64,000 nucleotides of DNA, taken from Leeuwenhoekiella aequorea (GTDB lineage: Bacteria; Bacteroidota; Bacteroidia; Flavobacteriales; Flavobacteriaceae). The notes under the pieces were generated by a model. It was given only the letters and a program-made list of their open reading frames with translations. It was not told where the DNA came from and did not search any database. Positions within the stretch are counted from its first letter, which is position 1, and every line of letters begins with the position of its first letter. Both the position numbers and the translations under genes were made by a program. Location of the stretch: the NCBI RefSeq assembly GCF_004104375.1, contig NZ_QOVM01000003.1, positions 1 through 64,000 on the forward strand. Reading direction: 5' to 3'. Below are positions 30,528-42,381 of this stretch, one piece after another.

Positions 30528-31418
30528 TTAAAGAACTCTTGAGATATCTACTTCTACCTTAAGTTTACTTTTTCCGCTGCCATAAACAACTCCTTTTAAT
30601 GGTGGCACATCATAATAATCACGACCCCAGCCTACTACTATATGTTGATCTCCGGGGATTTGATTGTTTGTAGGGTCAAAATCAACCCATCCAAAGCTGG
30701 GAATAAATATCGAAAACCAAGCGTGACTCGCATCTGCTCCGACTAATTTTTCTTGTCCTGCTGGAGGTATTGTTTCAATATAACCACTTACATATCGTGC
30801 TGGTAACCCCACTGATCTGATACAGGCAATGGCTATCTGAGCAAAATCTTGGCATACTCCTTTTCTATTTCTCATCACTTCATTAATAGGAGTCGATACA
30901 CTCGTGAAGCCGGAAACAAAATCAAAATCTATATATATACGTTGCATTAATTCTTCCGCAGCTTCAAATATGGAGCGATTGGGTTTAAAACTTTCTTTTG
31001 CATAATTAGAAATAGCTTCGTCTGTCTTTTTTATGAATATAGACTCTAAAGCAAATTGTTTTGCTTCTAATATATCTGGCTCTGTCTTTAATAATGATTT
31101 CTTAGCTTGATCTAAGGATATCTTTGAACAAGCATCTGATCTAAAATCATTCTTAAATTGCTCATATTCCCGCCGTATTTTACTTACAGTTGTAACTTTT
31201 AATTGGGTATGCTCTTTTTGTATTGAAAACCGAGTGATATAGTTACCAAAAAAATCTACACGCTCTGAAATTTCATCAGCTTCGGGGCTTATGTGAATTT
31301 TATACTCAAGCAATTCTTGCCCCAGTGAGCGTCTAGACTTCAACACCGCAATATTATGACAATAACTTACGGGCGCATCATAATCGTATTTTGTGGTATG
31401 CGAAATAGAATAGAGCAT
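30528..31418 (-). CDS. Transglutaminase-like cysteine peptidase family protein (third gene of the amidoligase operon)
   Basis: This 296-residue protein has an N-terminal beta domain (bacterial transglutaminase-like N-terminal region, about 1-90) and a transglutaminase core with the triad Cys189 (RKGVCQDFAQ), His232 (DASHAWFSIF) and Asp248 (WVDFDPTNN). No signal peptide is present, so it should act in the cytosol. Its start overlaps the stop of the ATP-grasp/alpha-E gene (TAATG), so it is translated from the same message. Such proteins may cleave or form amide bonds; the target is not known. Confidence 0.87.
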   Translation of the reverse strand: MLYSISHTTKYDYDAPVSYCHNIAVLKSRRSLGQELLEYKIHISPEADEISERVDFFGNYITRFSIQKEHTQLKVTTVSKIRREYEQFKNDFRSDACSKISLDQAKKSLLKTEPDILEAKQFALESIFIKKTDEAISNYAKESFKPNRSIFEAAEELMQRIYIDFDFVSGFTSVSTPINEVMRNRKGVCQDFAQIAIACIRSVGLPARYVSGYIETIPPAGQEKLVGADASHAWFSIFIPSFGWVDFDPTNNQIPGDQHIVVGWGRDYYDVPPLKGVVYGSGKSKLKVEVDISRVL

Positions 31419-33976
31419 TATATAGGAAAATTTTGATCTACTAACTGACTTTGTTTATAGGTATGATTAAAATAGGTATTGGATATTGATTGTGAAGTCT
31501 TAAACAAAAGGTCGCTTAATTTTTCTAATAAATTATCAAGTTCTTCTCTAAGCAAACCATCAGTATTGGAATTTGCCAATGCTTCTGAACTTGCCAGACG
31601 CAGACTTGAGAAAGCCTCAAATACAAATTTTTCGTAATTCATAAACACATCAGATTTTTTTGAATGTGGTAAACGAGCAATATCTTTTTGTAACCTGCCT
31701 AGATGAAAAGCTAAAGATCTGGGATAGTGTAAATCCATTAGCAATAAACTTATAACCGGTTCGATACGTATATAGGAACGATAGCTGTATCTGTAGATAT
31801 TAAGACTTTCGTGACTACTTAAAAGAGATTCTAAAATTTCATATTCCGTTTGACTAGATTGTTTAATTACCAGTAGAGCACGACATTTAGTTATGGTAAG
31901 CATACCTTGCTCCAGTTGCAGTCCTATAAAGTATAAAAGTAATCCTTGATCTACCATGATACTTTCTTCAATAAGTCCCATAAAAGCAATTAACCGAGTA
32001 ATTAGCTGATTTAAAGCGCGAATCAATTTAGTAACCGTTAGGTTTTTTTCAATTTCCAGATTACGCCATATCTTCTGAATATTTTCAAATACCCGCCACA
32101 TATCACTACTCCATAAATTGCGTATGGAATAATACGAATTGTTAAACATACTCATCGTATTAGCCAAACTTCCTACTCTGTTTCGGTCTAATAGTACTGC
32201 TGTCAACTCATCAAGAATTTGATCACTTGATAATTGAGTTGTGTCAGATTTCATAAACCCCGGAAATGTTCCGGTTATTTGTGTGACCGCCTTCAATAGA
32301 ACTTCTAATTTTCCATTGGTTATATTCTGTTGCGCATGTGCTTCAGGAGCATTTATTTGTTTAAGAACCATTCGCAGAAATCGCGCGTTCACAAGTGTAC
32401 GCCCTACATACCTTCCTGCCCAATACAAATTTTCAGCAGTTAAACTTGGCAAGTCATCAAGACCACTTACTGAAACTGCAGACTTTCTATTCCAGTTAAA
32501 ACTCGGTTGCTCATCTGTTTTAGAATTTCCTATAATCCAAAAATCCTTACTGGTGCCGCCGCGTTGATTTGAAACTCTAATGTTATCCCGCTCTGGGGCT
32601 ACGCGTACCAGACCACCGGGCATAACATTATACCCCATTTTACCGGCAATTGCAAAGGTCCTGGCAACCATATTACGGGGTTCAAAATTCCCTTTACTAT
32701 AATTAGGAGTTGTAGAAAAACTTATATGTTCTTGAGCAACAAAGTGGTAGGGTTTCTTTTCTATTTCTATTCTTAATGCTTCTAATTCTTTAGCTGAAAG
32801 TAATTCTCCAAAGTGAATGTGTTCTCTATTTGTCCGATCTATAGGCTTAATAACCAACTTGTTTAAATTCTCAAGCACAAAATTGCGTTCTTTTTCTTGA
32901 CCACACCACCAAGATGCGATTTGCGGAAGGTTTAATTCTTCCTTCAAAAAAAATTGACAAATAGCAGGCATAAAAGGTATTAACCCCGGGTTTTCAAGAA
33001 TACCGCTACCTATGGGATTTACTACTGCTACGTTTTGCCGTCTAACAACATCGAGCAAACCTGCCACACCCAGATGAGAATCTTCGCGTAACTCTAAAGG
33101 ATCTGCAAAAACATCATCTACTCTGCGCAAAACCACGTGTACGCGCTTAAGACCCTTGAGTGATTTCATATATAACAAACCGTCTCTAACAACCAGATCA
33201 TTGCCTTGCACTAATGGGTAACCTAAAAAAGATGCTAAATAAGCGTGTTCAAAATAGGTTTCATTATGAGATCCTGGTGTTAAAATAACGATGTTGGGAT
33301 TTTCGATTTTTTCGGGAGATGCTTCAATAAGTAGCTCGTTAAATTCTTTAAAAAATTCAGACAGCCTTTTAATATTCATATCTGCAAAGACATCTGAAAA
33401 AACACGATTGGCTGTAGATCTATTTTCTAAAGCATAACCCATACCAGAAGGTGCTTGGGATCTATCATTTACCACCCACATTCTACCGTCACTACCGCGC
33501 GCCAAATCTGCGGCATATAGTAATAGATGTCTATCTATTTTGTAATGAATTTTATCACATTGCCTTAAAAACCCACGATGACTATAAATCACCTCGTGCG
33601 GGACAATACCTTCTTTAATTAATTTACGGTCTCCATAAATATCTTTAAGAACTCTGTCTAAAATATCTGCCCGTTGCTTAAGTCCTTTTTCAATAAGTTG
33701 CCATTCCTTATAATCTAGCAAAAACGGAACTACATTAAGATTCCACGGTCTATTTAGTCCGTTTGGATCATTATAAACATTGTACGTTACACCATTTTCT
33801 TCAAGTAACCAGTTTATATCATTTTGTCGCTGTGTGAGACCATCAACACCTATATCTTTAAAATTTTCTAATAGCTTGTTCCAATCCCCTTTAACATCAA
33901 GATCTGCTGTAAACATCTCGTCATAGGTATTGTCTGTAAAGTATTTTGAAAACCAAGCATTTTTAGCTTCGGCCAT
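31418..33976 (-). CDS. Circularly permuted ATP-grasp / alpha-E domain fusion protein
   Basis: This 852-residue cytosolic protein has two parts. About 60-490 is a circularly permuted type 2 ATP-grasp domain (DUF404/407), with WVVNDRSQAPSGMGYALENR, LTPGSHNETYFEHAYLA and RREDSHLG-like blocks (ELREDSHLGVAGLLDVVRR) plus NPIGSGILENPGL. About 520-840 is the all-helical alpha-E (DUF403) domain, with ENLYWAGRYVGRT and multiple arginine-rich helices. In many bacteria these are two genes; here they are fused. ATP-grasp enzymes ligate a carboxylate to an amine at the cost of ATP. It follows the DUF2126 gene by 16 nt. Confidence 0.88.
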   Translation of the reverse strand: MAEAKNAWFSKYFTDNTYDEMFTADLDVKGDWNKLLENFKDIGVDGLTQRQNDINWLLEENGVTYNVYNDPNGLNRPWNLNVVPFLLDYKEWQLIEKGLKQRADILDRVLKDIYGDRKLIKEGIVPHEVIYSHRGFLRQCDKIHYKIDRHLLLYAADLARGSDGRMWVVNDRSQAPSGMGYALENRSTANRVFSDVFADMNIKRLSEFFKEFNELLIEASPEKIENPNIVILTPGSHNETYFEHAYLASFLGYPLVQGNDLVVRDGLLYMKSLKGLKRVHVVLRRVDDVFADPLELREDSHLGVAGLLDVVRRQNVAVVNPIGSGILENPGLIPFMPAICQFFLKEELNLPQIASWWCGQEKERNFVLENLNKLVIKPIDRTNREHIHFGELLSAKELEALRIEIEKKPYHFVAQEHISFSTTPNYSKGNFEPRNMVARTFAIAGKMGYNVMPGGLVRVAPERDNIRVSNQRGGTSKDFWIIGNSKTDEQPSFNWNRKSAVSVSGLDDLPSLTAENLYWAGRYVGRTLVNARFLRMVLKQINAPEAHAQQNITNGKLEVLLKAVTQITGTFPGFMKSDTTQLSSDQILDELTAVLLDRNRVGSLANTMSMFNNSYYSIRNLWSSDMWRVFENIQKIWRNLEIEKNLTVTKLIRALNQLITRLIAFMGLIEESIMVDQGLLLYFIGLQLEQGMLTITKCRALLVIKQSSQTEYEILESLLSSHESLNIYRYSYRSYIRIEPVISLLLMDLHYPRSLAFHLGRLQKDIARLPHSKKSDVFMNYEKFVFEAFSSLRLASSEALANSNTDGLLREELDNLLEKLSDLLFKTSQSISNTYFNHTYKQSQLVDQNFPI

Positions 33977-33992
33977 AGTTAGGGTTCTATAG

Positions 33993-36900
33993 TTATTTCT
34001 TTCTCAAATCTAATAAGTGTGGAAATTCGGGATTTACAGGAATTTCTTTAAAGTTGAAGGCTTTTTCAGAACTTGTTGTTTTAAAGCTTCGTGTAACTGT
34101 CCCGGTAACCGGCTCAGTTTCGGAAGGATTAATTGTGCCTTGCGTGTGCCCCATCTCCCAAAATCTATTAATGCGTCGAGATTCTGCTTCTAAGCTGTTT
34201 ATAGGATAAGTCTCATAACTTCTTCCACCGGGATGAGATACAAAATATGTGCAACCACCTATTGATCGCTGATTCCATAAATCTACCACATCAAATACTA
34301 AGGGCGTATCTACTCCTATTGTAGGATGTAATGCCGACCAAGGATCCCACGCTTTATACCGCACTCCGGCCACATATTCTCCTTTTACTTCAGTTTTACT
34401 GAGCTGAACTTTAACCCCATTGCAACTTACTACATAACGCTCATCATTAAAGTTTGAGATTTTTATCTGTACACGCTCAAGTGAGGAATCTACGTAACGT
34501 GCAGTACCTCCTCCTGTCATTTCTTCACCAAGCACATTCCAGGGTTCAATAGCAGCTCGCAATTCTATCTGCATCTCTTTAATATCTACGAGACCATACA
34601 ACGGAAATCTAAATTCAAAAAACGGATCAAACCAATCCAATTTAAATGAATAACCTGCAGTATTTAACTGATTTACGATATCTTTTATATCTTCTTTTAC
34701 ATAGTGCTCCATTAAAAATTTATCGTGCAATTGTGTACCCCACCGAACTAATTTATGCTTATAAGGCTCTTTCCAAAACCAAGAAACCAGTGTGCGCACC
34801 AGCAACATTTGCATAAGACTCATTTGTGGATGTGGAGGCATATCAAAGGCGCGTAATTCTAAAATGCCTAAACGTCCCGATGACGAATCTGGTGAATACA
34901 ATTTATCTATACAGAACTCAGCACGGTGTGTATTACCCGTTATATCTGTGAGCAAATGCCTAAATAATCGATCTGTTAACCAGTAAGGAACCTCTTCTCC
35001 TTCCGGAATTTGATTAAAGGCAATTTCTAATTCATAAAGATTTTCAGCTCTACCTTCATCTACTCGCGGCGCCTGACTGGTAGATCCTATAAATCCTCCA
35101 GAAAACAAATACGATAATCCTGGATGATGCTGCCAGAACGTTAACAAACTTCTTAGCATATCTGGTCTTCGTAATAACGGACTATCGGCAGGTGTTGTCC
35201 CTCCTAAAGTAACATGGTTACCGGTACCGGTATGCTTGCCATCAAGCATAAATTTTTCAGTACCTAAACGGCTCCTTTTTGCTTCCTCATACAACGTAAG
35301 GGTCGTTTTTGTTAATTCACTCCAGTTCTTAGAAGGGTGCACATTTACTTCTATCACTCCAGGGTCTGGCGTAACTTTTAAAACTTCTAACCGAATATCT
35401 CTTGGAGGTTCATAACCTTCAATTAAAACAGGCACACTAAGCGCCTTTGCTGTAGTTTCTATCGAGGCAATAAGATCTAGAAAAGTTTCTGCATCATCAA
35501 GTGGCGGTAAGAAAAGATACAATCTCTTTTCTCGTACCTCAGCACAAATCGCTGTGCGTGCAAATGGATTCTTCTCTTTCTTATCTGCATTATAATCTAT
35601 CTTACTTTTAGAAACTTCTGTTTTTTTATTTCGTCTTTCACTTAAAGCTTCACCGTAAGCACCAAAGGGTTTGCGTTTATCAAATAAATCTGGTTCTGTA
35701 ATATCCTGTGAAGGAGTTTCTGGATTTTCAATTAGGGAATTAAGAGGTAATCTATAACCAACAGGAGAATTGCCAGGTATTAAAAACAATTTTTTCTGTC
35801 TAAATTCCCAAGCATTGGTAACCCATTTACCTCTAATATTTGCTAGTGGCATAACATGCCCTATTTTTTTATCAAGTCCTTGTTCTAGTATTTTATTAAG
35901 TCTGTTACGTACTGATGTAGCGGTATCATCCCCTTTTAGAGGATCTACGTCTATGGGCAATCGCCCCTCTTCCCACATAAAATAAAATACATCTTCATAC
36001 GCCGGCATAATATATTCCAAACGCACCCCTAGATTAAGGGCCAGATCTTGTAGAAACTTTTTAGTAATACCCTGCGGAAGCTCATATTCTTTAGTAAATG
36101 ATGCCATTAGCCCTTGATCCTTCCAGATAGGTTCACCATCTTTACGCCAATGCATCCCAATTGCCCATCGCGGAATAGGCTCACCTGGATACCATTTTCC
36201 CTGAGCGTGATGAAACATTCCTCCTTTAGCAAATTTATCTAGTAGCCTTTTTGATAAATCTTCGGAAAGTTTACGTTTTTCAGGTCCGTCTGCTGCAGTA
36301 TTCCACTGTTCAGACTCCATATCATCTATAGAGACAAATGTGGGTTCACCCCCCATAGTTAGTCGCACATCGTTATCCTGTAATTCCTGTTCTACATCAT
36401 AACCTAGTTCATATATTTCTTTCCATTGGCCTTCTGTATAAGGCTTTGTAACTCTGGGAGATTCAAAAATACGCGTCACCGAATTATCAAACTCAAATTC
36501 AGTTTCAGCAGGATCAGAAAACCCAACTACCGGAGCAGCACTTTCAAAAGATGGTGTGCACGCAAGGGGTATGTGACCTTCACTTGCTAAAAGTCCTGAA
36601 GTAGCATCAAGACCTATCCATCCCGCTCCGGGGACATACACCTCAGCCCAGGCGTGTAAATCTGTAAAATCTTCCTCGGGACCAGAAGGACCATCGAGTG
36701 ATTTCTCGTCTGATTTAAGTTGTACTAAGTAACCCGACACAAATCGTGCTGCCATCCCGAGGTGACGTAGTGATTGTACAAGTAACCAGGCAAAATCCCG
36801 ACAAGAACCCAGTTTTTTTTCTAAGGTTTGCTCACACGTTTGCACGCCTGGTTCCATGCGTACAGTATAGTCTAGATATTCATTAATGTGCCTATTTATG

Positions 36901-37340
36901 CCTATTAAAAAATAAATAGTTAATTGCTCTTTTGTATCTATAGTCTTTAAAAAAGAGACTAATTGAGGTCCGCTGTCTGTAATCTCAAGATAAGGAAGCA
37001 ATTCTTTTTTTAATGATTCTGAATATTTAAACGGAAAATTTTCGACAGCTTCTTCAACAAAAAAGTCAAAAGGATTAATCGTTTTTAAATCGGCTAATAT
37101 CTCAACATCAATAGATAATTCATCTGTTTTTTCAGGAAAAACTACACGTGCTAAATAATTTCCAAATGGATCCTGCTGCCAGTTAAAGAAATGATTTTCG
37201 GGTTTAATTTTTAAGGAGTAAGCCTCAATAGGAGTTCTGCTATGTGGAGCAGGGCGTAATCTAAATATATGTGGCGAAAGCGAAATACGTTTATCATACT
37301 TATATTTTGTCTTATGAGAAATAACGACTTTTAACGCCAT
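33993..37340 (-). CDS. Transglutaminase-DUF2126 fusion protein
   Basis: This 1115-residue protein has an N-terminal transglutaminase module with Cys180 (LGSCRDFAW), His229 (DLHAWAEVYVPG) and Asp245 (WIGLDATSG). From about 320 onward a large DUF2126 (COG4196) region follows, with LTMGGEPTFVSIDD, WAIGMHWRKDGEPIW, LGGTTPADSPLLRRPD and LEIAFNQIPEGEE. The family has been placed near amidoligase/glutamine-synthetase-like ligases in comparative work, to my recollection; chemistry is unproven. No signal peptide is seen. It is the first gene of the three-gene operon ending at 30528. Confidence 0.88.
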   Translation of the reverse strand: MALKVVISHKTKYKYDKRISLSPHIFRLRPAPHSRTPIEAYSLKIKPENHFFNWQQDPFGNYLARVVFPEKTDELSIDVEILADLKTINPFDFFVEEAVENFPFKYSESLKKELLPYLEITDSGPQLVSFLKTIDTKEQLTIYFLIGINRHINEYLDYTVRMEPGVQTCEQTLEKKLGSCRDFAWLLVQSLRHLGMAARFVSGYLVQLKSDEKSLDGPSGPEEDFTDLHAWAEVYVPGAGWIGLDATSGLLASEGHIPLACTPSFESAAPVVGFSDPAETEFEFDNSVTRIFESPRVTKPYTEGQWKEIYELGYDVEQELQDNDVRLTMGGEPTFVSIDDMESEQWNTAADGPEKRKLSEDLSKRLLDKFAKGGMFHHAQGKWYPGEPIPRWAIGMHWRKDGEPIWKDQGLMASFTKEYELPQGITKKFLQDLALNLGVRLEYIMPAYEDVFYFMWEEGRLPIDVDPLKGDDTATSVRNRLNKILEQGLDKKIGHVMPLANIRGKWVTNAWEFRQKKLFLIPGNSPVGYRLPLNSLIENPETPSQDITEPDLFDKRKPFGAYGEALSERRNKKTEVSKSKIDYNADKKEKNPFARTAICAEVREKRLYLFLPPLDDAETFLDLIASIETTAKALSVPVLIEGYEPPRDIRLEVLKVTPDPGVIEVNVHPSKNWSELTKTTLTLYEEAKRSRLGTEKFMLDGKHTGTGNHVTLGGTTPADSPLLRRPDMLRSLLTFWQHHPGLSYLFSGGFIGSTSQAPRVDEGRAENLYELEIAFNQIPEGEEVPYWLTDRLFRHLLTDITGNTHRAEFCIDKLYSPDSSSGRLGILELRAFDMPPHPQMSLMQMLLVRTLVSWFWKEPYKHKLVRWGTQLHDKFLMEHYVKEDIKDIVNQLNTAGYSFKLDWFDPFFEFRFPLYGLVDIKEMQIELRAAIEPWNVLGEEMTGGGTARYVDSSLERVQIKISNFNDERYVVSCNGVKVQLSKTEVKGEYVAGVRYKAWDPWSALHPTIGVDTPLVFDVVDLWNQRSIGGCTYFVSHPGGRSYETYPINSLEAESRRINRFWEMGHTQGTINPSETEPVTGTVTRSFKTTSSEKAFNFKEIPVNPEFPHLLDLRKK

Positions 37341-37601: not shown

Positions 37602-38621
37602 TTAATATGTATTTAAAAACTCGAGAAATCTTTTATGCATTTGGTCTGTATAATCATAATGAGTTACTATACGCAACTTACCTTTCCCTAAGGCACTAAT
37701 ATGAATATCTTCATCTTGTAATTTTTGGATGAATTGTAACTCGTTTGCATTGGCATTCAGATTAAAAATTAAAATATTTGTCTCTACAGGCTCCACATGC
37801 GCTACGTCGGGATGCTTCATCAAGGCTATTGAAAGTTCCTGAGCTTTTTTATGATCTTCATCCATTCGCTGCCAGTTATGCTCTAATGCATAAAGACCTG
37901 CTGCCGCTGCAAAACCTACCTGACGCATTCCCCCACCAAGTACTTTGCGTACCCGCATTGCTTTATCCATAAACTTTTGCTTTCCTACAAGAACAGATCC
38001 CATAGGAGCGCCAAGACCTTTTGATAAGCATACAGATATCGTATCAAAAGCAGCTCCATAATCTTTAGGAGATTCATCGGTTACCACAAGAGCATTCCAT
38101 AAGCGTGCGCCATCAAGGTGAAAACCTAAACCATTGTCTTCACATACTTTCTTTATTTTAAGGATCTCTCTAAAATCATAACAAGCACCACCACCTTTAT
38201 TTGTCGTATTTTCTAAACAAACTAAAGAGGTTAATGGACTGTGATAAAAGTCTGGAGGATTTATACTTTCTTCAACCTGATCTGCGGTAATCATCCCACG
38301 ATGACCATCAAGTAACCTGCAAGACACACCACTATTAAAAGAAACTCCTCCTCCTTCATAATTATATACGTGCGCATACTTATCTGCTATTAACTGCTCG
38401 CCAGGCTGTGTATGAATTTTAATTGCTGCTTGATTAGTCATACTTCCGGTAGGAAAATATAAAGCACTATCCATCCCAAAAAGTTCTGCAATATGTTCTT
38501 CAAGTCTATTAACGCTAGGATCTTCTTTATAAACATCATCCCCCACTTCGGCTTGCATCATTGCTTCAAGCATTCCTTTTGATGGCTTAGTCAACGTATC
38601 GCTACGCAAATCTATTCTCAT
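37602..38621 (-). CDS. GntG-family PLP-dependent (L-allo-)threonine aldolase
   Basis: This 339-residue fold type I PLP enzyme splits threonine or other beta-hydroxy amino acids to glycine and an aldehyde. It opens with IDLRSDTLTKPSKGM and EVGDDVYKEDPSVNRLE. The likely PLP lysine is Lys201 in VCLSKGLGAPMGS, with the Asp of FHLDGAR as pyridine-N partner. It starts 26 nt after the SDR of the polyketide cluster on the same strand, so it may share its transcript, though threonine aldolase is also a common stand-alone gene. Confidence 0.9.
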   Translation of the reverse strand: MRIDLRSDTLTKPSKGMLEAMMQAEVGDDVYKEDPSVNRLEEHIAELFGMDSALYFPTGSMTNQAAIKIHTQPGEQLIADKYAHVYNYEGGGVSFNSGVSCRLLDGHRGMITADQVEESINPPDFYHSPLTSLVCLENTTNKGGGACYDFREILKIKKVCEDNGLGFHLDGARLWNALVVTDESPKDYGAAFDTISVCLSKGLGAPMGSVLVGKQKFMDKAMRVRKVLGGGMRQVGFAAAAGLYALEHNWQRMDEDHKKAQELSIALMKHPDVAHVEPVETNILIFNLNANANELQFIQKLQDEDIHISALGKGKLRIVTHYDYTDQMHKRFLEFLNTY

Positions 38622-38647
38622 AGTATATATTTTAAATTTTCTTGTAT

Positions 38648-39454
38648 TTATCTTAAGTGTTCGCCCCCATCTACTGGAATCACTGTACCATTAATCCAGT
38701 TTGCTTCAGGCTTTGCCAATAGGTAAACCACATTGGCAACATCTTCTGGTGTTGTTAATCGTTTTTGTGGATTGCGCTCTAATGCTTGATCTATTAACAA
38801 ATCACTTCCCGGAATAAGCTTTAAACTTTCAGTATTTGTAACTCCTGCTTGTATGCAATTTGCTGTTATAAGTAATGGTGCATATTCATAAGCCATACTG
38901 CGTATTATAGCTTCAAGCGAAGCTTTAGCCATAGATACCGCAGCATAATTAGGTAAAGGTTTTGTGCTTCCCTCACTCGTAAAGGTCAATATTCTGCTAT
39001 TTTTTTCAAATAATTTTTCAGCTACAAAGGCTTTTACCCAAGTATAAAGACTCACAGCCATTGCATCTGCCGTAAGTAGAAAGTCTGTACCGGTGAGGGT
39101 TGCTATACTTTTATCTGTACTATAGATGGGTTTTAAATTTCCTTTAGCGATGCTGTGTAAGAGTAATTTTAAAGTAGCTTGCCGGTCATTAAAAAAACGA
39201 ATCACATCTTCGATGGTTTCCTCCTGAAGAGCATCTTTATTAAAACAACTAATTTTTACTCCAAGTTCTCGAAGCTTATCGCAAGCAGCATTAAATTCTT
39301 CAAGTTTACTTCTTCTTGTACGATGTACGATACAAATATTCAACCCGTTCTGTGCAAGTTTTTTAACTGAAGCAAAGCCCAAGCCACTACTACCTCCTAA
39401 AACAAGTGCCCATGAATTTGAATGTGGTTTTGTATTAAATTCAAAATTTACCAT
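38648..39454 (-). CDS. FabI/FabL-like SDR reductase in the type III PKS operon
   Basis: This 268-residue Rossmann protein has the cofactor motif GGSSGLG (20-26) and catalytic pair Tyr170/Lys177 in the spacing Y-x6-K (PLPNYAAVSMAKASLEA). That spacing is typical of enoyl-ACP reductases (FabI/FabL) rather than classical SDRs (Y-x3-K). SIAKGNLKPI also resembles the SIAFA-type block of FabI. It overlaps the polyketide synthase gene by 7 nt. It may reduce a double bond in the polyketide or in its fatty-acyl starter; this is inference from family and coupling. Confidence 0.8.
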   Translation of the reverse strand: MVNFEFNTKPHSNSWALVLGGSSGLGFASVKKLAQNGLNICIVHRTRRSKLEEFNAACDKLRELGVKISCFNKDALQEETIEDVIRFFNDRQATLKLLLHSIAKGNLKPIYSTDKSIATLTGTDFLLTADAMAVSLYTWVKAFVAEKLFEKNSRILTFTSEGSTKPLPNYAAVSMAKASLEAIIRSMAYEYAPLLITANCIQAGVTNTESLKLIPGSDLLIDQALERNPQKRLTTPEDVANVVYLLAKPEANWINGTVIPVDGGEHLR

Positions 39455-40515
39455 TGTAACAATATACGTTGTGCAGAAAATCCAGGTCCAAAACTAAGCA
39501 TTAGTCCGTATTCTCCATTTTCAATCTCTCTATTTAAAAAACGTTCTAATACATACAACACCGTAACACTACTCATATTGCCGTACGCTCTCAAAACTTC
39601 TTTAGTGTCATCGATATTTTTACCCATCTCACCAAAGAGACCTTCAACGGTTTGCACAATTTTCTTTCCGCCAGGGTGAAAAATCAAATGATTTATATGT
39701 TCTATCGAAAGATCATTATTTTTTAAAAACGGATTTATTAATAAAGGAAAGTGCGACGCAATAGTTTCTGGCACACTCGGGTCTAAGATCATTTTTAATC
39801 CGGAATTTGTGAGTTTAAATCCCATCATATGTTCTGCATCATAAAAATGATACATTCCTGTATCTTTTATCCTGGGACCACTATCTTCTTCTTTAGAGGA
39901 TAATAACACACAAGCACCGCCATCACCAAATATCGCAGCACTCACGATATTTGCCATAGAATAATCATCTAGTTGAAAAGTAGCTGTGGGACTTTCTACT
40001 GCAATAACTGCCGCACGTTTACCAGGATTGGCTTTCAAAAAATCATTAGCATATAAAATTCCAGAAATTCCTGCAGCACAGCCCATCTCGGTGACCGGAA
40101 GCCTTACAATATCTTGCCTCAGCTTCAATTTATTAATAAGATATGCGTCTAACGACGGAATCATAATGCCAGTACAACTTACCGTAATGATATAGTCTAT
40201 ACTTTGTGCATCCCAATCCGCTTTTTCTAGGGCATCTTTTAAAGCGGTTTCTCCAAGTTTAATAACCTCTCTAGAATAAATTTCATTTTTTTCTTCAAAA
40301 GAAGAAGCTGTAAACACCTCTTCCGGAGCCATAATACTGTACCGCTTATCTACGGCAGCATTAGTAAATATCTTCTTTACCTTTCTGCGAAAGCGCTCCT
40401 CCTGATTTTCTAACCAACTGTCTAAAAGTGGCATTATATCCTGAGTTTCCCTATGATATTGAGGAATCGCTTTACTTACACTAGTAATTTTTACTTCTGT
40501 TTTTCTAAAATCCAT
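39448..40515 (-). CDS. Type III polyketide synthase
   Basis: This 355-residue chalcone-synthase-like enzyme condenses malonyl-CoA units onto a starter in the cytosol. The catalytic triad is visible: Cys146 (VTEMGCAAGIS), His280 (LIFHPGGKKIV) and Asn313 (YGNMSSVTVL), with the C-terminal SFGPGFSAQ loop. Bacterial relatives make alkylresorcinols or alkylpyrones from fatty-acyl starters; the product here is unknown. It overlaps the methyltransferase gene by 25 nt upstream and the SDR by 7 nt downstream, indicating a tightly coupled operon. Confidence 0.93.
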   Translation of the reverse strand: MDFRKTEVKITSVSKAIPQYHRETQDIMPLLDSWLENQEERFRRKVKKIFTNAAVDKRYSIMAPEEVFTASSFEEKNEIYSREVIKLGETALKDALEKADWDAQSIDYIITVSCTGIMIPSLDAYLINKLKLRQDIVRLPVTEMGCAAGISGILYANDFLKANPGKRAAVIAVESPTATFQLDDYSMANIVSAAIFGDGGACVLLSSKEEDSGPRIKDTGMYHFYDAEHMMGFKLTNSGLKMILDPSVPETIASHFPLLINPFLKNNDLSIEHINHLIFHPGGKKIVQTVEGLFGEMGKNIDDTKEVLRAYGNMSSVTVLYVLERFLNREIENGEYGLMLSFGPGFSAQRILLQW

Positions 40516-41192
40516 AAATATCTAAAAGCCCATCGCCAGTTCAATTTATAAGACGCGACTTTGAGCTTGCTTGTAAACATTAATAATTCGTTTTTATTAA
40601 ATGCCCGTTCAATAGATATCAATCCATCGTGGCGGGCTATATGCGTTTTCATAAATACAGTACTAAAGCCTTTAAACAGAATATGGGCAATTTTGGAACG
40701 ATGTAAGTCATTAATTACCACGCCTAACTTAGAAAGCTTTAGAAATTGTTTAAGAAATACAAGAATTTCATCGTTTGTAAAATGATGCATCGTAAGTACA
40801 GAGATAATAATATCACATTGAAAAGAGGTACTTTCTAATTGTAGAATATCTTGTTTTTTATATACTATTTCAGGATAGTCTTTAGATTGTTGTCTTGCCA
40901 AATCAAGACTCTTTTCATTAAGATCTAGTCCTACTAATTCTACCTGTATACGTTGTGCACGCATATGGTTTGCAATTTTTCGAAGCATCGCACCATCACC
41001 ACAACCTAGATCTACAATTTTATATTTCTCCTGCGGAAATTTATTTATAAAATAGCGAATTCCCTCAACGGTAATGTGTTCACCTCCCAGCCATTTGTTG
41101 ACTAATGTAACATCCTTTAGAGCAGATTGAAGTGTTACACGATCAAGTGTAGGGTCATCCATCAATTCTGGAGTAAGCTTTCTATTTTTCAA
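40491..41192 (-). CDS. SAM-dependent methyltransferase of the PKS operon
   Basis: This 233-residue class I methyltransferase has SAM motif I VDLGCGDGAML (60-70), an acidic end of strand 2 (GLDLNEKSL) and IIISVLTMHHF as motif II/post I. It starts with TTG, overlapping the stop of the FAD-oxidoreductase gene as TTGA, which supports that start. By analogy with the Streptomyces srs operon (PKS, methyltransferase, flavoprotein), it may methylate a phenolic polyketide. The target is not demonstrated. Confidence 0.85.
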   Translation of the reverse strand: MKNRKLTPELMDDPTLDRVTLQSALKDVTLVNKWLGGEHITVEGIRYFINKFPQEKYKIVDLGCGDGAMLRKIANHMRAQRIQVELVGLDLNEKSLDLARQQSKDYPEIVYKKQDILQLESTSFQCDIIISVLTMHHFTNDEILVFLKQFLKLSKLGVVINDLHRSKIAHILFKGFSTVFMKTHIARHDGLISIERAFNKNELLMFTSKLKVASYKLNWRWAFRYLWILEKQK

Positions 41193-42343
41193 TTCTTTAC
41201 AGGTTTGCCGTGAGTAGCTTTAATTATATATTTTAACAAAAATGGAAAGTTCTGTATAAGCTTAAAACAATAGCGCGTCGCTAATCTATTTTGAAATAGT
41301 GTTTGTAGCGCACTCCCAATTCGTAATCGGGAATTAAATTCTTTTTTCCAGCTTTTTTCATAATTTCTTTCTAGTTGTGATCGACTCCAATTACCCGTAT
41401 CAAATTTGATGATATGCTCAGATAATAGTTGAGCACCTCTTACAGCCATAGCCATCCCATTACCACATAGGGGATGTATGAGACCTGCACTATCCCCACA
41501 CATGAATATATGATTTTCTATAACCTTCTTTTGATCGAAAGAGATTTGACTTATGGTTAATGGCTTTTCAAATAGCGGTGTAGCCTCCTTAAAAAATGTC
41601 TTTAATCTCGGATTTCTTTCTAAGACATTCTCTTGAAAATTTATAAGGCTAGACCGTTCCTTAAAAGCATCCAGGTGTGTTATATAACACACATTTATTC
41701 TGTTCTTCTCCACACTAGAAATACCGCAATAGCCACCATCAAAATTATGTAAACTCACGGTATTACTATTTACAGATCCTGAGTAATGGCCTTTAACAGC
41801 CAGCCACGGAGTCTTTAAAGTTATAAATTTACGATGGAGCGCTTTGTCTAAATTAGACCTTTTCCCATAACTTCCGATAACTAAATTCACCTCGTATTCG
41901 TTACCTAACAAGGTCTGAAGGCTGAAAATTTCGTTGTTTTTTTCTACAGATTGCACTTGTTCTTGCACTATTCTTACATCTGCTTTTTTGGCTGCAGCCA
42001 TTAAATTATAGTCAAGCAAATATCTACTTATACTAAAACCTCCTAGAGGAAGTTTGGCTTCAATGGGCTCACCTTGAACGGTTGTGAATTCAAAATTCGT
42101 TATTGGCACTGCTCCCCATTCAAAAGGATTTATTCCTAAAGTAATCCAATACGGTAAAATTTCATTAGAAATATATTCTCCGCAAACTTTATGTTTGGGA
42201 TACCTTTCTTTTTCAAAAAGAAGCACCTCAAAACCGGCCTTACTTAGATGCAAAGCAGCTGTTAAACCAGCAAGTCCACCACCAATAATTCCTATTCGTT
42301 CTATTCTCTTCAAAGCATATTGAAGATACTCATTCCGGCGCAT
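41189..42343 (-). CDS. FAD-dependent oxidoreductase (geranylgeranyl-reductase-like)
   Basis: This 384-residue flavoprotein has a dinucleotide fold IGIIGGGLAGLTAALHLSKA near 17-36, GEYISNEILPYW after the first helix, and the second FAD motif MCGDSAGLIHPLCGNGMAMA, typical of the geranylgeranyl reductase/aromatic hydroxylase group. It is the first gene of the polyketide operon. ATG 42343 abuts a terminator T run; TTG at 42313 (LKRIERIGIIGGG) is a plausible later start. It may oxidise or reduce the polyketide product. Confidence 0.85.
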   Translation of the reverse strand: MRRNEYLQYALKRIERIGIIGGGLAGLTAALHLSKAGFEVLLFEKERYPKHKVCGEYISNEILPYWITLGINPFEWGAVPITNFEFTTVQGEPIEAKLPLGGFSISRYLLDYNLMAAAKKADVRIVQEQVQSVEKNNEIFSLQTLLGNEYEVNLVIGSYGKRSNLDKALHRKFITLKTPWLAVKGHYSGSVNSNTVSLHNFDGGYCGISSVEKNRINVCYITHLDAFKERSSLINFQENVLERNPRLKTFFKEATPLFEKPLTISQISFDQKKVIENHIFMCGDSAGLIHPLCGNGMAMAVRGAQLLSEHIIKFDTGNWSRSQLERNYEKSWKKEFNSRLRIGSALQTLFQNRLATRYCFKLIQNFPFLLKYIIKATHGKPVKN

Positions 42344-42381
42344 AAAAAAACCTCATTGTAAATTTATTTACAATGAGGTTT
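42344..42381 (-). terminator. Terminator of the OmpA-like gene, abutting the PKS operon
   Basis: A perfect 15-bp stem, AAACCTCATTGTAAA (42348-42362) with its complement at 42367-42381, closes a TTTA loop. On the minus strand seven T follow (42350-42344), ending at the ATG of the FAD oxidoreductase. Confidence 0.85.

What the first reader, a model, noticed from the sequence alone, without database searches (positions are those of the whole stretch)
37602..42343. Translationally coupled type III polyketide synthase cluster
FAD oxidoreductase, methyltransferase, type III PKS and a FabI-like reductase overlap by 4, 25 and 7 nt, and a threonine aldolase follows after 26 nt. PKS-methyltransferase-flavoprotein sets make methylated alkylresorcinols and quinones in Streptomyces (srs operon). 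Here the flavoprotein looks more like a geranylgeranyl reductase and a Y-x6-K reductase is added, so the product may be a differently reduced lipid. The threonine aldolase, if part of the operon, would be an unusual member.
Basis: partly seen in the sequence, partly recalled or inferred. Interest (0 to 1): 0.65.

Follow-up and report, generated by a model that had tools for sequence, protein, structure and literature searches.

The report
Split type III polyketide synthase operon
A marine bacterium carries half of a widespread but uncharacterised gene cluster that probably makes a modified fatty phenol or related lipid; the other half, which seems to supply the fatty chain, sits elsewhere in its genome, so the two halves can be overlooked as one pathway.

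Summary
The PKS belongs to a sharp clade: 33 of 394 sampled genomes of the phylum at 66% identity or more, the next hits at 37% or less. In 71 of 71 named loci of other genera the operon continues with a FabZ-like dehydratase, a ketosynthase and an acyl carrier protein, and in 70 of 71 a phosphopantetheinyl transferase. None of these is at the window locus, but this genome has related dehydratase, ketosynthase and carrier genes on another contig. PKS and ketosynthase occur in the same 33 of 394 genomes. So the window holds half of a split operon. Most likely the in-trans carrier module supplies an acyl chain to the PKS, and methyltransferase and flavoenzyme decorate the product. The threonine aldolase occurs in relatives with and without the PKS, yet follows the operon in 13 of 13 genomes of this genus. 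Product unknown; a new variant of a known kind.

The parts
41189..42313 (-). FAD-dependent oxidoreductase (GGR-superfamily-like), probable TTG start at 42313 (longest ORF starts at 42343)
   Evidence: ORF; families; start and invariant motifs in a 21-row alignment; model pLDDT 82.9; nearest folds flavin halogenases and hydroxylases
40491..41192 (-). class I SAM methyltransferase, TTG start overlapping the FAD stop by 4 nt
   Evidence: 26% identity over 198 residues to the methyltransferase of a Deinococcus T3PKS-MT-FAD trio; also related to one in a Paenibacillus trio; glycines of the SAM motif in 33 of 33
39448..40515 (-). type III polyketide synthase with Cys146, His280, Asn313
   Evidence: triad in 33 of 33 aligned relatives; best solved relatives PKS11 (E 2.7e-48) and CylI (E 4.9e-45); only Chal_sti_synt_N match in the genome
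38648..39454 (-). SDR of the enoyl-ACP reductase (FabL/FabI) type with Y-x6-K
   Evidence: best solved relative FabL 3oic; aligned Tyr and Lys
37602..38621 (-). threonine aldolase of the GntG subfamily; membership in the pathway undecided
   Evidence: NCBIfam NF041359 365.6 bits against cut-off 230; one match each in 24 of 26 genomes; next to the operon in 13 of 13 genomes of the genus
42348..42381 (-). terminator-like hairpin after the upstream OmpA-like gene, immediately before the operon
   Evidence: 15-pair stem and T tail

Best explanation
[quoted passage not shown] Proposed working: the ketosynthase and dehydratase, with a housekeeping ketoreductase (assumed, not searched for) and the FabL-like reductase of the window operon, build or extend an acyl chain on the dedicated carrier protein. 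The chain is handed to Cys146 of the type III PKS, which adds malonyl units and cyclises to an alkylresorcinol- or alkylpyrone-like ring. The class I methyltransferase methylates it, and the flavoenzyme hydroxylates or otherwise oxidises or reduces ring or chain. Shown: gene content, co-occurrence, conserved catalytic residues, split location. Inferred: carrier hand-over, ring type, order of tailoring, product. The threonine aldolase is more likely a co-inherited neighbour than a pathway enzyme.
For: FAD-MT-PKS in order in 80 of 80 named loci; DH+KAS+ACP present in 71 of 71 loci outside the genus and in 0 of 9 within it. DH+KAS+ACP also in 26 of 26 fetched unnamed loci outside the genus, and in 0 of 13 loci of the distant PKS class. 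PKS (at least 66%) and KAS (at least 59%) in the same 33 of 394 genomes (two searches with the same settings), 32 with starts 1.5-2.7 kb apart, only this genome apart. KAS found in 13 of 13 genomes of the genus, one a fragment; DH-KAS-ACP in 7 of 7 second loci fetched. PKS and KAS trees both put the genus next to G404, whose operon is intact. G404 and other genera share the upstream neighbours of the window. Catalytic residues of PKS, KAS, DH and ACP kept in 33 of 33. Precedent: ArsB and ArsC accept acyl groups from the ArsA carrier domain (PMC6274091, passages).
Against: Five of the other 361 genomes carry a KAS at 45-51% without this PKS. PKS-MT-FAD trios in Paenibacillus and Deinococcus show no KAS, DH, ACP or PPTase relative within about 6 kb, so the trio can exist without the set. 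No relative of the Salinimicrobium PPTase was found in 13 of 13 genomes of the genus; one PF01648 protein in the genome would have to serve. Across 182 genus-versus-others pairs, PKS and KAS distances correlate only weakly (r 0.28; 0.80 over all pairs, which partly reflects species history). In the PKS tree G404 is a flagged long branch and its fork is only 88/75. The FabL-like reductase was found in only 16 of 71 loci outside the genus, so it is not part of the common core. No chemistry is available.
Confidence: 0.6

Rival explanations
1. The window operon is a self-sufficient three- or four-gene phenolic lipid or polyketide quinone operon (srs, pkq, hid kind) that takes housekeeping acyl-CoA. 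The KAS-DH-ACP genes became independent in this genus and now serve another lipid.
For: PKS-MT-oxidoreductase operons are linked to alkylresorcinols, hierridins and polyketide quinones in other phyla (PMC10896814, sections 12 part 1 and 13; PMC9927152, passages). Paenibacillus and Deinococcus trios show no relative of the KAS set within about 6 kb (a hotdog-domain gene beside the Deinococcus PKS, does not align with the dehydratase). In this genus the two gene sets are not linked.
Against: KAS is found in 13 of 13 genomes of the genus, and the 33 of 33 match between PKS and KAS includes this genome. The separate block keeps the order DH-KAS-ACP.
Confidence: 0.25
2. The PKS uses a short or aromatic starter, or malonyl-CoA alone (phloroglucinol or 3,5-dihydroxyphenylacetate type), and the KAS set makes a separate acyl group that is attached later.
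For: Best NCBIfam model is DpgA at 187.5 bits, below its cut-off of 425.
Against: No enoyl-CoA hydratase among the window genes and accessory genes tested with Pfam, unlike a real dpg locus. The best solved relatives are the alpha-pyrone synthase PKS11 and CylI. No further family, such as an acyltransferase, is shared by most of the loci.
Confidence: 0.1
3. The threonine aldolase is a working member of the pathway in this genus, for example supplying an aldehyde, glycine or a beta-hydroxy amino acid.
For: It lies beside the reductase in 13 of 13 genomes of the genus and stays attached in G007, G008 and L010, where one or both outer flanks differ. It is present in 20 of 20 tested genomes with the PKS and in 4 of 6 without it.
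Against: It also occurs without the PKS (G016, G017, G018, G020), and in 0 of 71 named loci outside the genus is it within the flanks of the PKS. The gap varies from about 15 to about 210 nt.
Confidence: 0.2

Closest known systems
Type III PKS - methyltransferase - oxidoreductase operons: planctomycete alkylresorcinol cluster and cyanobacterial hidABC (PMC10896814), mycobacterial and Streptomyces pkqABC and S. griseus phenolic lipid operon (PMC9927152)
   Same: Adjacent genes of the same three classes. Trios of unknown product in Paenibacillus and Deinococcus have related methyltransferases, and the Paenibacillus one a related flavoprotein.
   Different: Gene order FAD-MT-PKS; flavoprotein only weakly similar to the Deinococcus one; SDR in some members; conserved KAS, DH, ACP and PPTase genes in the clade. 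Sequences of the named operons themselves were not compared.
Azotobacter ars system: fatty acid synthase ArsA feeding type III PKSs ArsB and ArsC (PMC6274091, passages)
   Same: Fatty-acid-making genes dedicated to a type III PKS; carrier-bound starter plausible.
   Different: Discrete type II-like proteins instead of a type I synthase; here encoded at a separate locus; direct transfer not shown.
bpsA-bpsB operon, alkylpyrones (PMC5686519, passages)
   Same: Type III PKS with a partner gene; that BpsB is a methyltransferase of the ICMT kind is recalled.
   Different: ICMT-type genes sit beside the distant Bacteroidota PKS class (5 of 5 tested); the window clade has a class I enzyme and no ICMT in its set.
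T3PKS-arylpolyene cluster of Aequorivita (PMC6139392, passages) and the separate T3PKS and aryl polyene clusters of Leeuwenhoekiella (PMC9859067, passages)
   Same: Probably the same gene families seen by antiSMASH; the Leeuwenhoekiella paper reports a T3PKS in all eight species and a conserved beta-ketoacyl synthase vicinity.
   Different: The passages read do not link the two loci in Leeuwenhoekiella; matching to our coordinates is inferred.

Membership tests
Type III polyketide synthase | Chal_sti_synt N and C domains with a Cys-His-Asn triad | tested here: met
srs/pkq/hid three-gene phenolic lipid or quinone operons | Adjacent T3PKS, class I methyltransferase and FAD oxidoreductase | tested here: met
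srs/pkq/hid three-gene phenolic lipid or quinone operons | PKS groups with SrsA, PkqA or HidC in a tree | not tested
   Sequences of these characterised enzymes were not obtained
srs/pkq/hid three-gene phenolic lipid or quinone operons | Product is a methylated alkylresorcinol or alkylquinone | not testable with these tools
   Needs chemistry
bpsA-bpsB alkylpyrone operon | ICMT-type methyltransferase next to the PKS (feature recalled) | tested here: not met
   Window methyltransferase is class I; none of the accessory genes is ICMT
DpgA | Score above the NCBIfam equivalog cut-off, dpgBCD neighbours | tested here: not met
   187.5 of 425 bits; no enoyl-CoA hydratase among the genes tested, unlike a real dpg locus
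Enoyl-ACP reductase FabL/FabI | Y-x6-K active site (meaning recalled) | tested here: met
   Alignment to FabL 3oic
Enoyl-ACP reductase FabL | Score above the NCBIfam equivalog cut-off | tested here: not met
   153.7 of 328 bits
Geranylgeranyl reductase family | Score above TIGR02032 cut-off | tested here: not met
   86.8 of 158.8 bits; nearest folds are halogenases and hydroxylases
Azotobacter ars-like FAS-fed type III PKS | Fatty-acid-making genes dedicated to the PKS | tested here: inconclusive
   KAS, DH and ACP co-occur with the PKS, but they are type II-like and their substrate is unknown
Azotobacter ars-like FAS-fed type III PKS | Direct transfer of the acyl chain from carrier protein to PKS | not testable with these tools
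   Needs enzymology
GntG-type threonine aldolase | Score above NF041359 cut-off | tested here: met
   365.6 of 230 bits

The most novel reading that the evidence does not exclude
A dedicated, discrete acyl carrier protein with its own ketosynthase and dehydratase passes an acyl chain straight to a type III PKS, forming a new lineage of fatty-acid-synthase and type III PKS hybrid lipids across Flavobacteriaceae and some other Bacteroidota. In Leeuwenhoekiella this works from two unlinked loci that genome-mining tools score as two separate clusters. The product may be a methylated, redox-active membrane lipid comparable to polyketide quinones.
Probability: 0.35. Interest if true: 0.65.

Novelty: new variant of a known kind. 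Interest (0 to 1): 0.45.

Why it matters
Type III PKS clusters made up 10.74% of the clusters predicted in a study of 2,680 genomes of Flavobacteriaceae and relatives (PMC10734526, passages). In the listings of eight paper searches, which cover open-access papers only, I saw no report of a product for this Bacteroidota clade. Defining the full gene set, and showing that it is split in one genus, says which genes should be expressed together to obtain the product and gives a direct test of carrier-bound starters for type III PKSs.

Tried and rejected
Rejected: DpgA-like function (cut-off not met, no dpg-type neighbours among the genes tested). BpsAB-like operon (other methyltransferase type). 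The idea that the accessory genes were simply lost in this genus (KAS, DH and ACP found elsewhere; only the PPTase seems lost). Flavin halogenase for the FAD protein: nearest folds are halogenases, but the W-x-W-x-I-P motif (recalled) is in 0 of 28 clade flavoproteins. A phloroglucinol product, suggested by memory of work on Zobellia: two papers were listed and the one whose passages I read gave no support, so it is not used.

Led nowhere: consensus promoter scan (23 found, 23.2 expected; sigma-70 is not the Bacteroidota type, recalled). Mapping of the ArsB Trp281 cyclisation residue: no alignment to ArsB or ArsC was obtained. Ten plasmid regions with other type III PKSs were searched with the whole gene set (six, four): 0 of 10 show a KAS, DH, ACP or PPTase relative. 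Outside the phylum I have only the plasmid collection (207 records, best-ranked place 35% identical); of the 414 loci only the best 80 were kept, all with Bacteroidota titles. No wider PKS tree was built. One of the 33 clade PKS genes (G212) has an in-frame TAA.
Full report
Observation. Pfam and NCBIfam confirm the gene classes. The longest flavoprotein ORF begins straight after a terminator-like hairpin downstream of an OmpA-like gene (42381-42348); relatives point to the in-frame TTG at 42313, 10 codons later. I found no promoter; the sigma-70 scan performs at chance.

Organism. The genome has one Chal_sti_synt_N match.

Distribution. A scan of genome contigs gave 414 relatives, of which the best 80 were kept; all bear Bacteroidota titles. 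In an even draw of 394 genomes of the phylum (completeness 80 or more), 165 match at E 1e-30 or better. Identity is at least 66% in 33 (30 of 42 members of the window's family and 3 others), then drops to 37% or less. The lower class is different: 5 of 5 adjacent proteins tested are ICMT-family, and 0 of 13 of its fetched loci have the window's partner genes. In 207 plasmid records the best-ranked place is 35% identical.

The operon in relatives. FAD, MT and PKS lie in this order on one strand in 80 of 80 named loci. Outside Leeuwenhoekiella, 71 of 71 also have a FabA/Z-like dehydratase, a ketosynthase and a carrier protein, 70 of 71 a PPTase, and 16 of 71 the SDR; Flavobacterium dominates these 71. 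In Leeuwenhoekiella 9 of 9 have the SDR and the aldolase and none of the four others (families). Twenty-six of 26 unnamed loci fetched from outside the genus have DH, KAS and ACP, 8 of them without a detected PPTase.

The missing half. The Salinimicrobium KAS finds a 62% identical protein on contig 2 of this genome, and matches at 57-64% in 13 of 13 genomes of the genus; the one in G012 (81% complete) is a fragment. The stretch shows dehydratase, KAS and ACP in a row on one strand, then a nitroreductase-family gene. The three genes are together in 7 of 7 such loci fetched. No relative of the Salinimicrobium PPTase was found in 13 of 13 genomes of the genus, though it was found in 2 of the 3 others searched; one PF01648 protein exists in this genome.

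Is it the same pathway? Genomes with the clade PKS (at least 66%) and with the KAS (at least 59%) are the same 33 of 394 (two searches with the same settings; the handles listed agree). In 32 the starts lie 1.5 to 2.7 kb apart; only the window genome has them apart (rows typed from the outputs). Against exclusivity, 5 of the other 361 have a KAS at 45-51%. Trees of 33 PKS and 33 KAS both place the genus as one group (PKS 93/77, KAS 98/90) next to G404 (88/75 and 100/96); G404 is a flagged long branch in the PKS tree. G404 has the intact operon, lacks a detected PPTase, and has the upstream neighbours of the window, so the window position looks ancestral and the DH-KAS-ACP block the part that moved. 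PKS and KAS distances correlate at 0.80 over all pairs of 33 genomes, but only at 0.28 over the 182 pairs between the genus and the rest.

Catalytic state. PKS Cys-His-Asn, KAS Cys-His-Lys-His, ACP Ser and dehydratase His and Glu are identical in 33 of 33. The SDR Tyr is kept in 22 of 23; the exception is a distant SDR (29%) elsewhere in the G176 stretch that was picked up as best hit. FAD glycines are kept in 28 of 28; the other 5 of 33 genomes had no complete FAD sequence to hand. The roles of these residues are recalled from the families. The SDR aligns to FabL with its Tyr and Lys. The FAD model (pLDDT 82.9) is nearest in fold to flavin halogenases and aromatic hydroxylases at 14-19% identity in the 50 matches listed.

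Threonine aldolase. It scores above the GntG cut-off. Of 26 genomes tested 24 have one match: 20 of 20 with the clade PKS and 4 of 6 without it (PKS status). It was not seen near the PKS in any of the 71 named loci outside the genus. Against a mere neighbour: it lies beside the operon in 13 of 13 genomes of the genus, and stays attached in G007, G008 and L010, where one or both outer flanks differ. I leave it at about one in five as a pathway member.

Known systems. T3PKS-MT-oxidoreductase operons are linked to alkylresorcinols in planctomycetes, hierridins in cyanobacteria and polyketide quinones in Actinobacteria (PMC10896814, abstract, section 12 part 1 and section 13; PMC9927152, passages). 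A Paenibacillus plasmid carries PKS, methyltransferase and flavoprotein relatives in a row (32%, 28% and 32% identity over parts), and a Deinococcus plasmid a trio with a related methyltransferase and a weakly similar flavoprotein; neither shows KAS, DH, ACP or PPTase relatives within about 6 kb. So the trio looks older and wider than the accessory set, which favours reading that set as an addition in this clade. Azotobacter ArsB and ArsC accept chains from the fatty acid synthase ArsA (PMC6274091, passages). For this clade, a T3PKS-arylpolyene cluster is mentioned for Aequorivita (PMC6139392, passages). For Leeuwenhoekiella, a T3PKS in all eight species, and aryl polyene clusters listed separately with a conserved ketosynthase vicinity, are reported without a known product (PMC9859067, passages). 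That this ketosynthase is the one in L186 is my inference.

Verdict. A real, conserved, incompletely recognised gene cluster, split in this genus; a new variant of a known kind, with product and carrier hand-over unproven.

Noticed in passing
window 31418-37340 and L186 13843-17332: Both halves of the split operon lie near circularly permuted ATP-grasp, alpha-E and transglutaminase genes (Pfam); the arrangement differs (fused and DUF2126-bearing in the window, separate in L186). May be coincidence.
   Followed up: partly
L173, L175, L178, L183, L185 (also L180 by eye): Nitroreductase-family genes (PF00881, 5 of 5 tested) lie near the distant class of Bacteroidota type III PKS genes in several loci; the DH-KAS-ACP locus of the window genome also has a nitroreductase-family neighbour.
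   Followed up: partly
G084, G115, G137, G165, G425: Relatives of the cluster ketosynthase at 45-51% identity occur without the window-type PKS; their neighbourhoods were not read.
   Followed up: no
L202 6001-9280: A Paenibacillus cellulosilyticus plasmid (no features annotated in the stretch) carries type III PKS, methyltransferase and flavoprotein genes in a row, all related to the window trio.
   Followed up: partly
L198 6995-9600: A Streptomyces plasmid has a type III PKS beside an ICMT-like gene (by eye) and a flavoprotein 26% identical to the Flavobacterium one, so similar flavoproteins occur with other type III PKS classes.
   Followed up: partly
L011, L051, L054, L072, L074, L156, L162, L164-L167, L170-L172: The operon often sits downstream of the same dehydrogenase-like, short lipoprotein-like and OmpA-like genes in different genera, a conserved chromosomal address.
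   Followed up: yes
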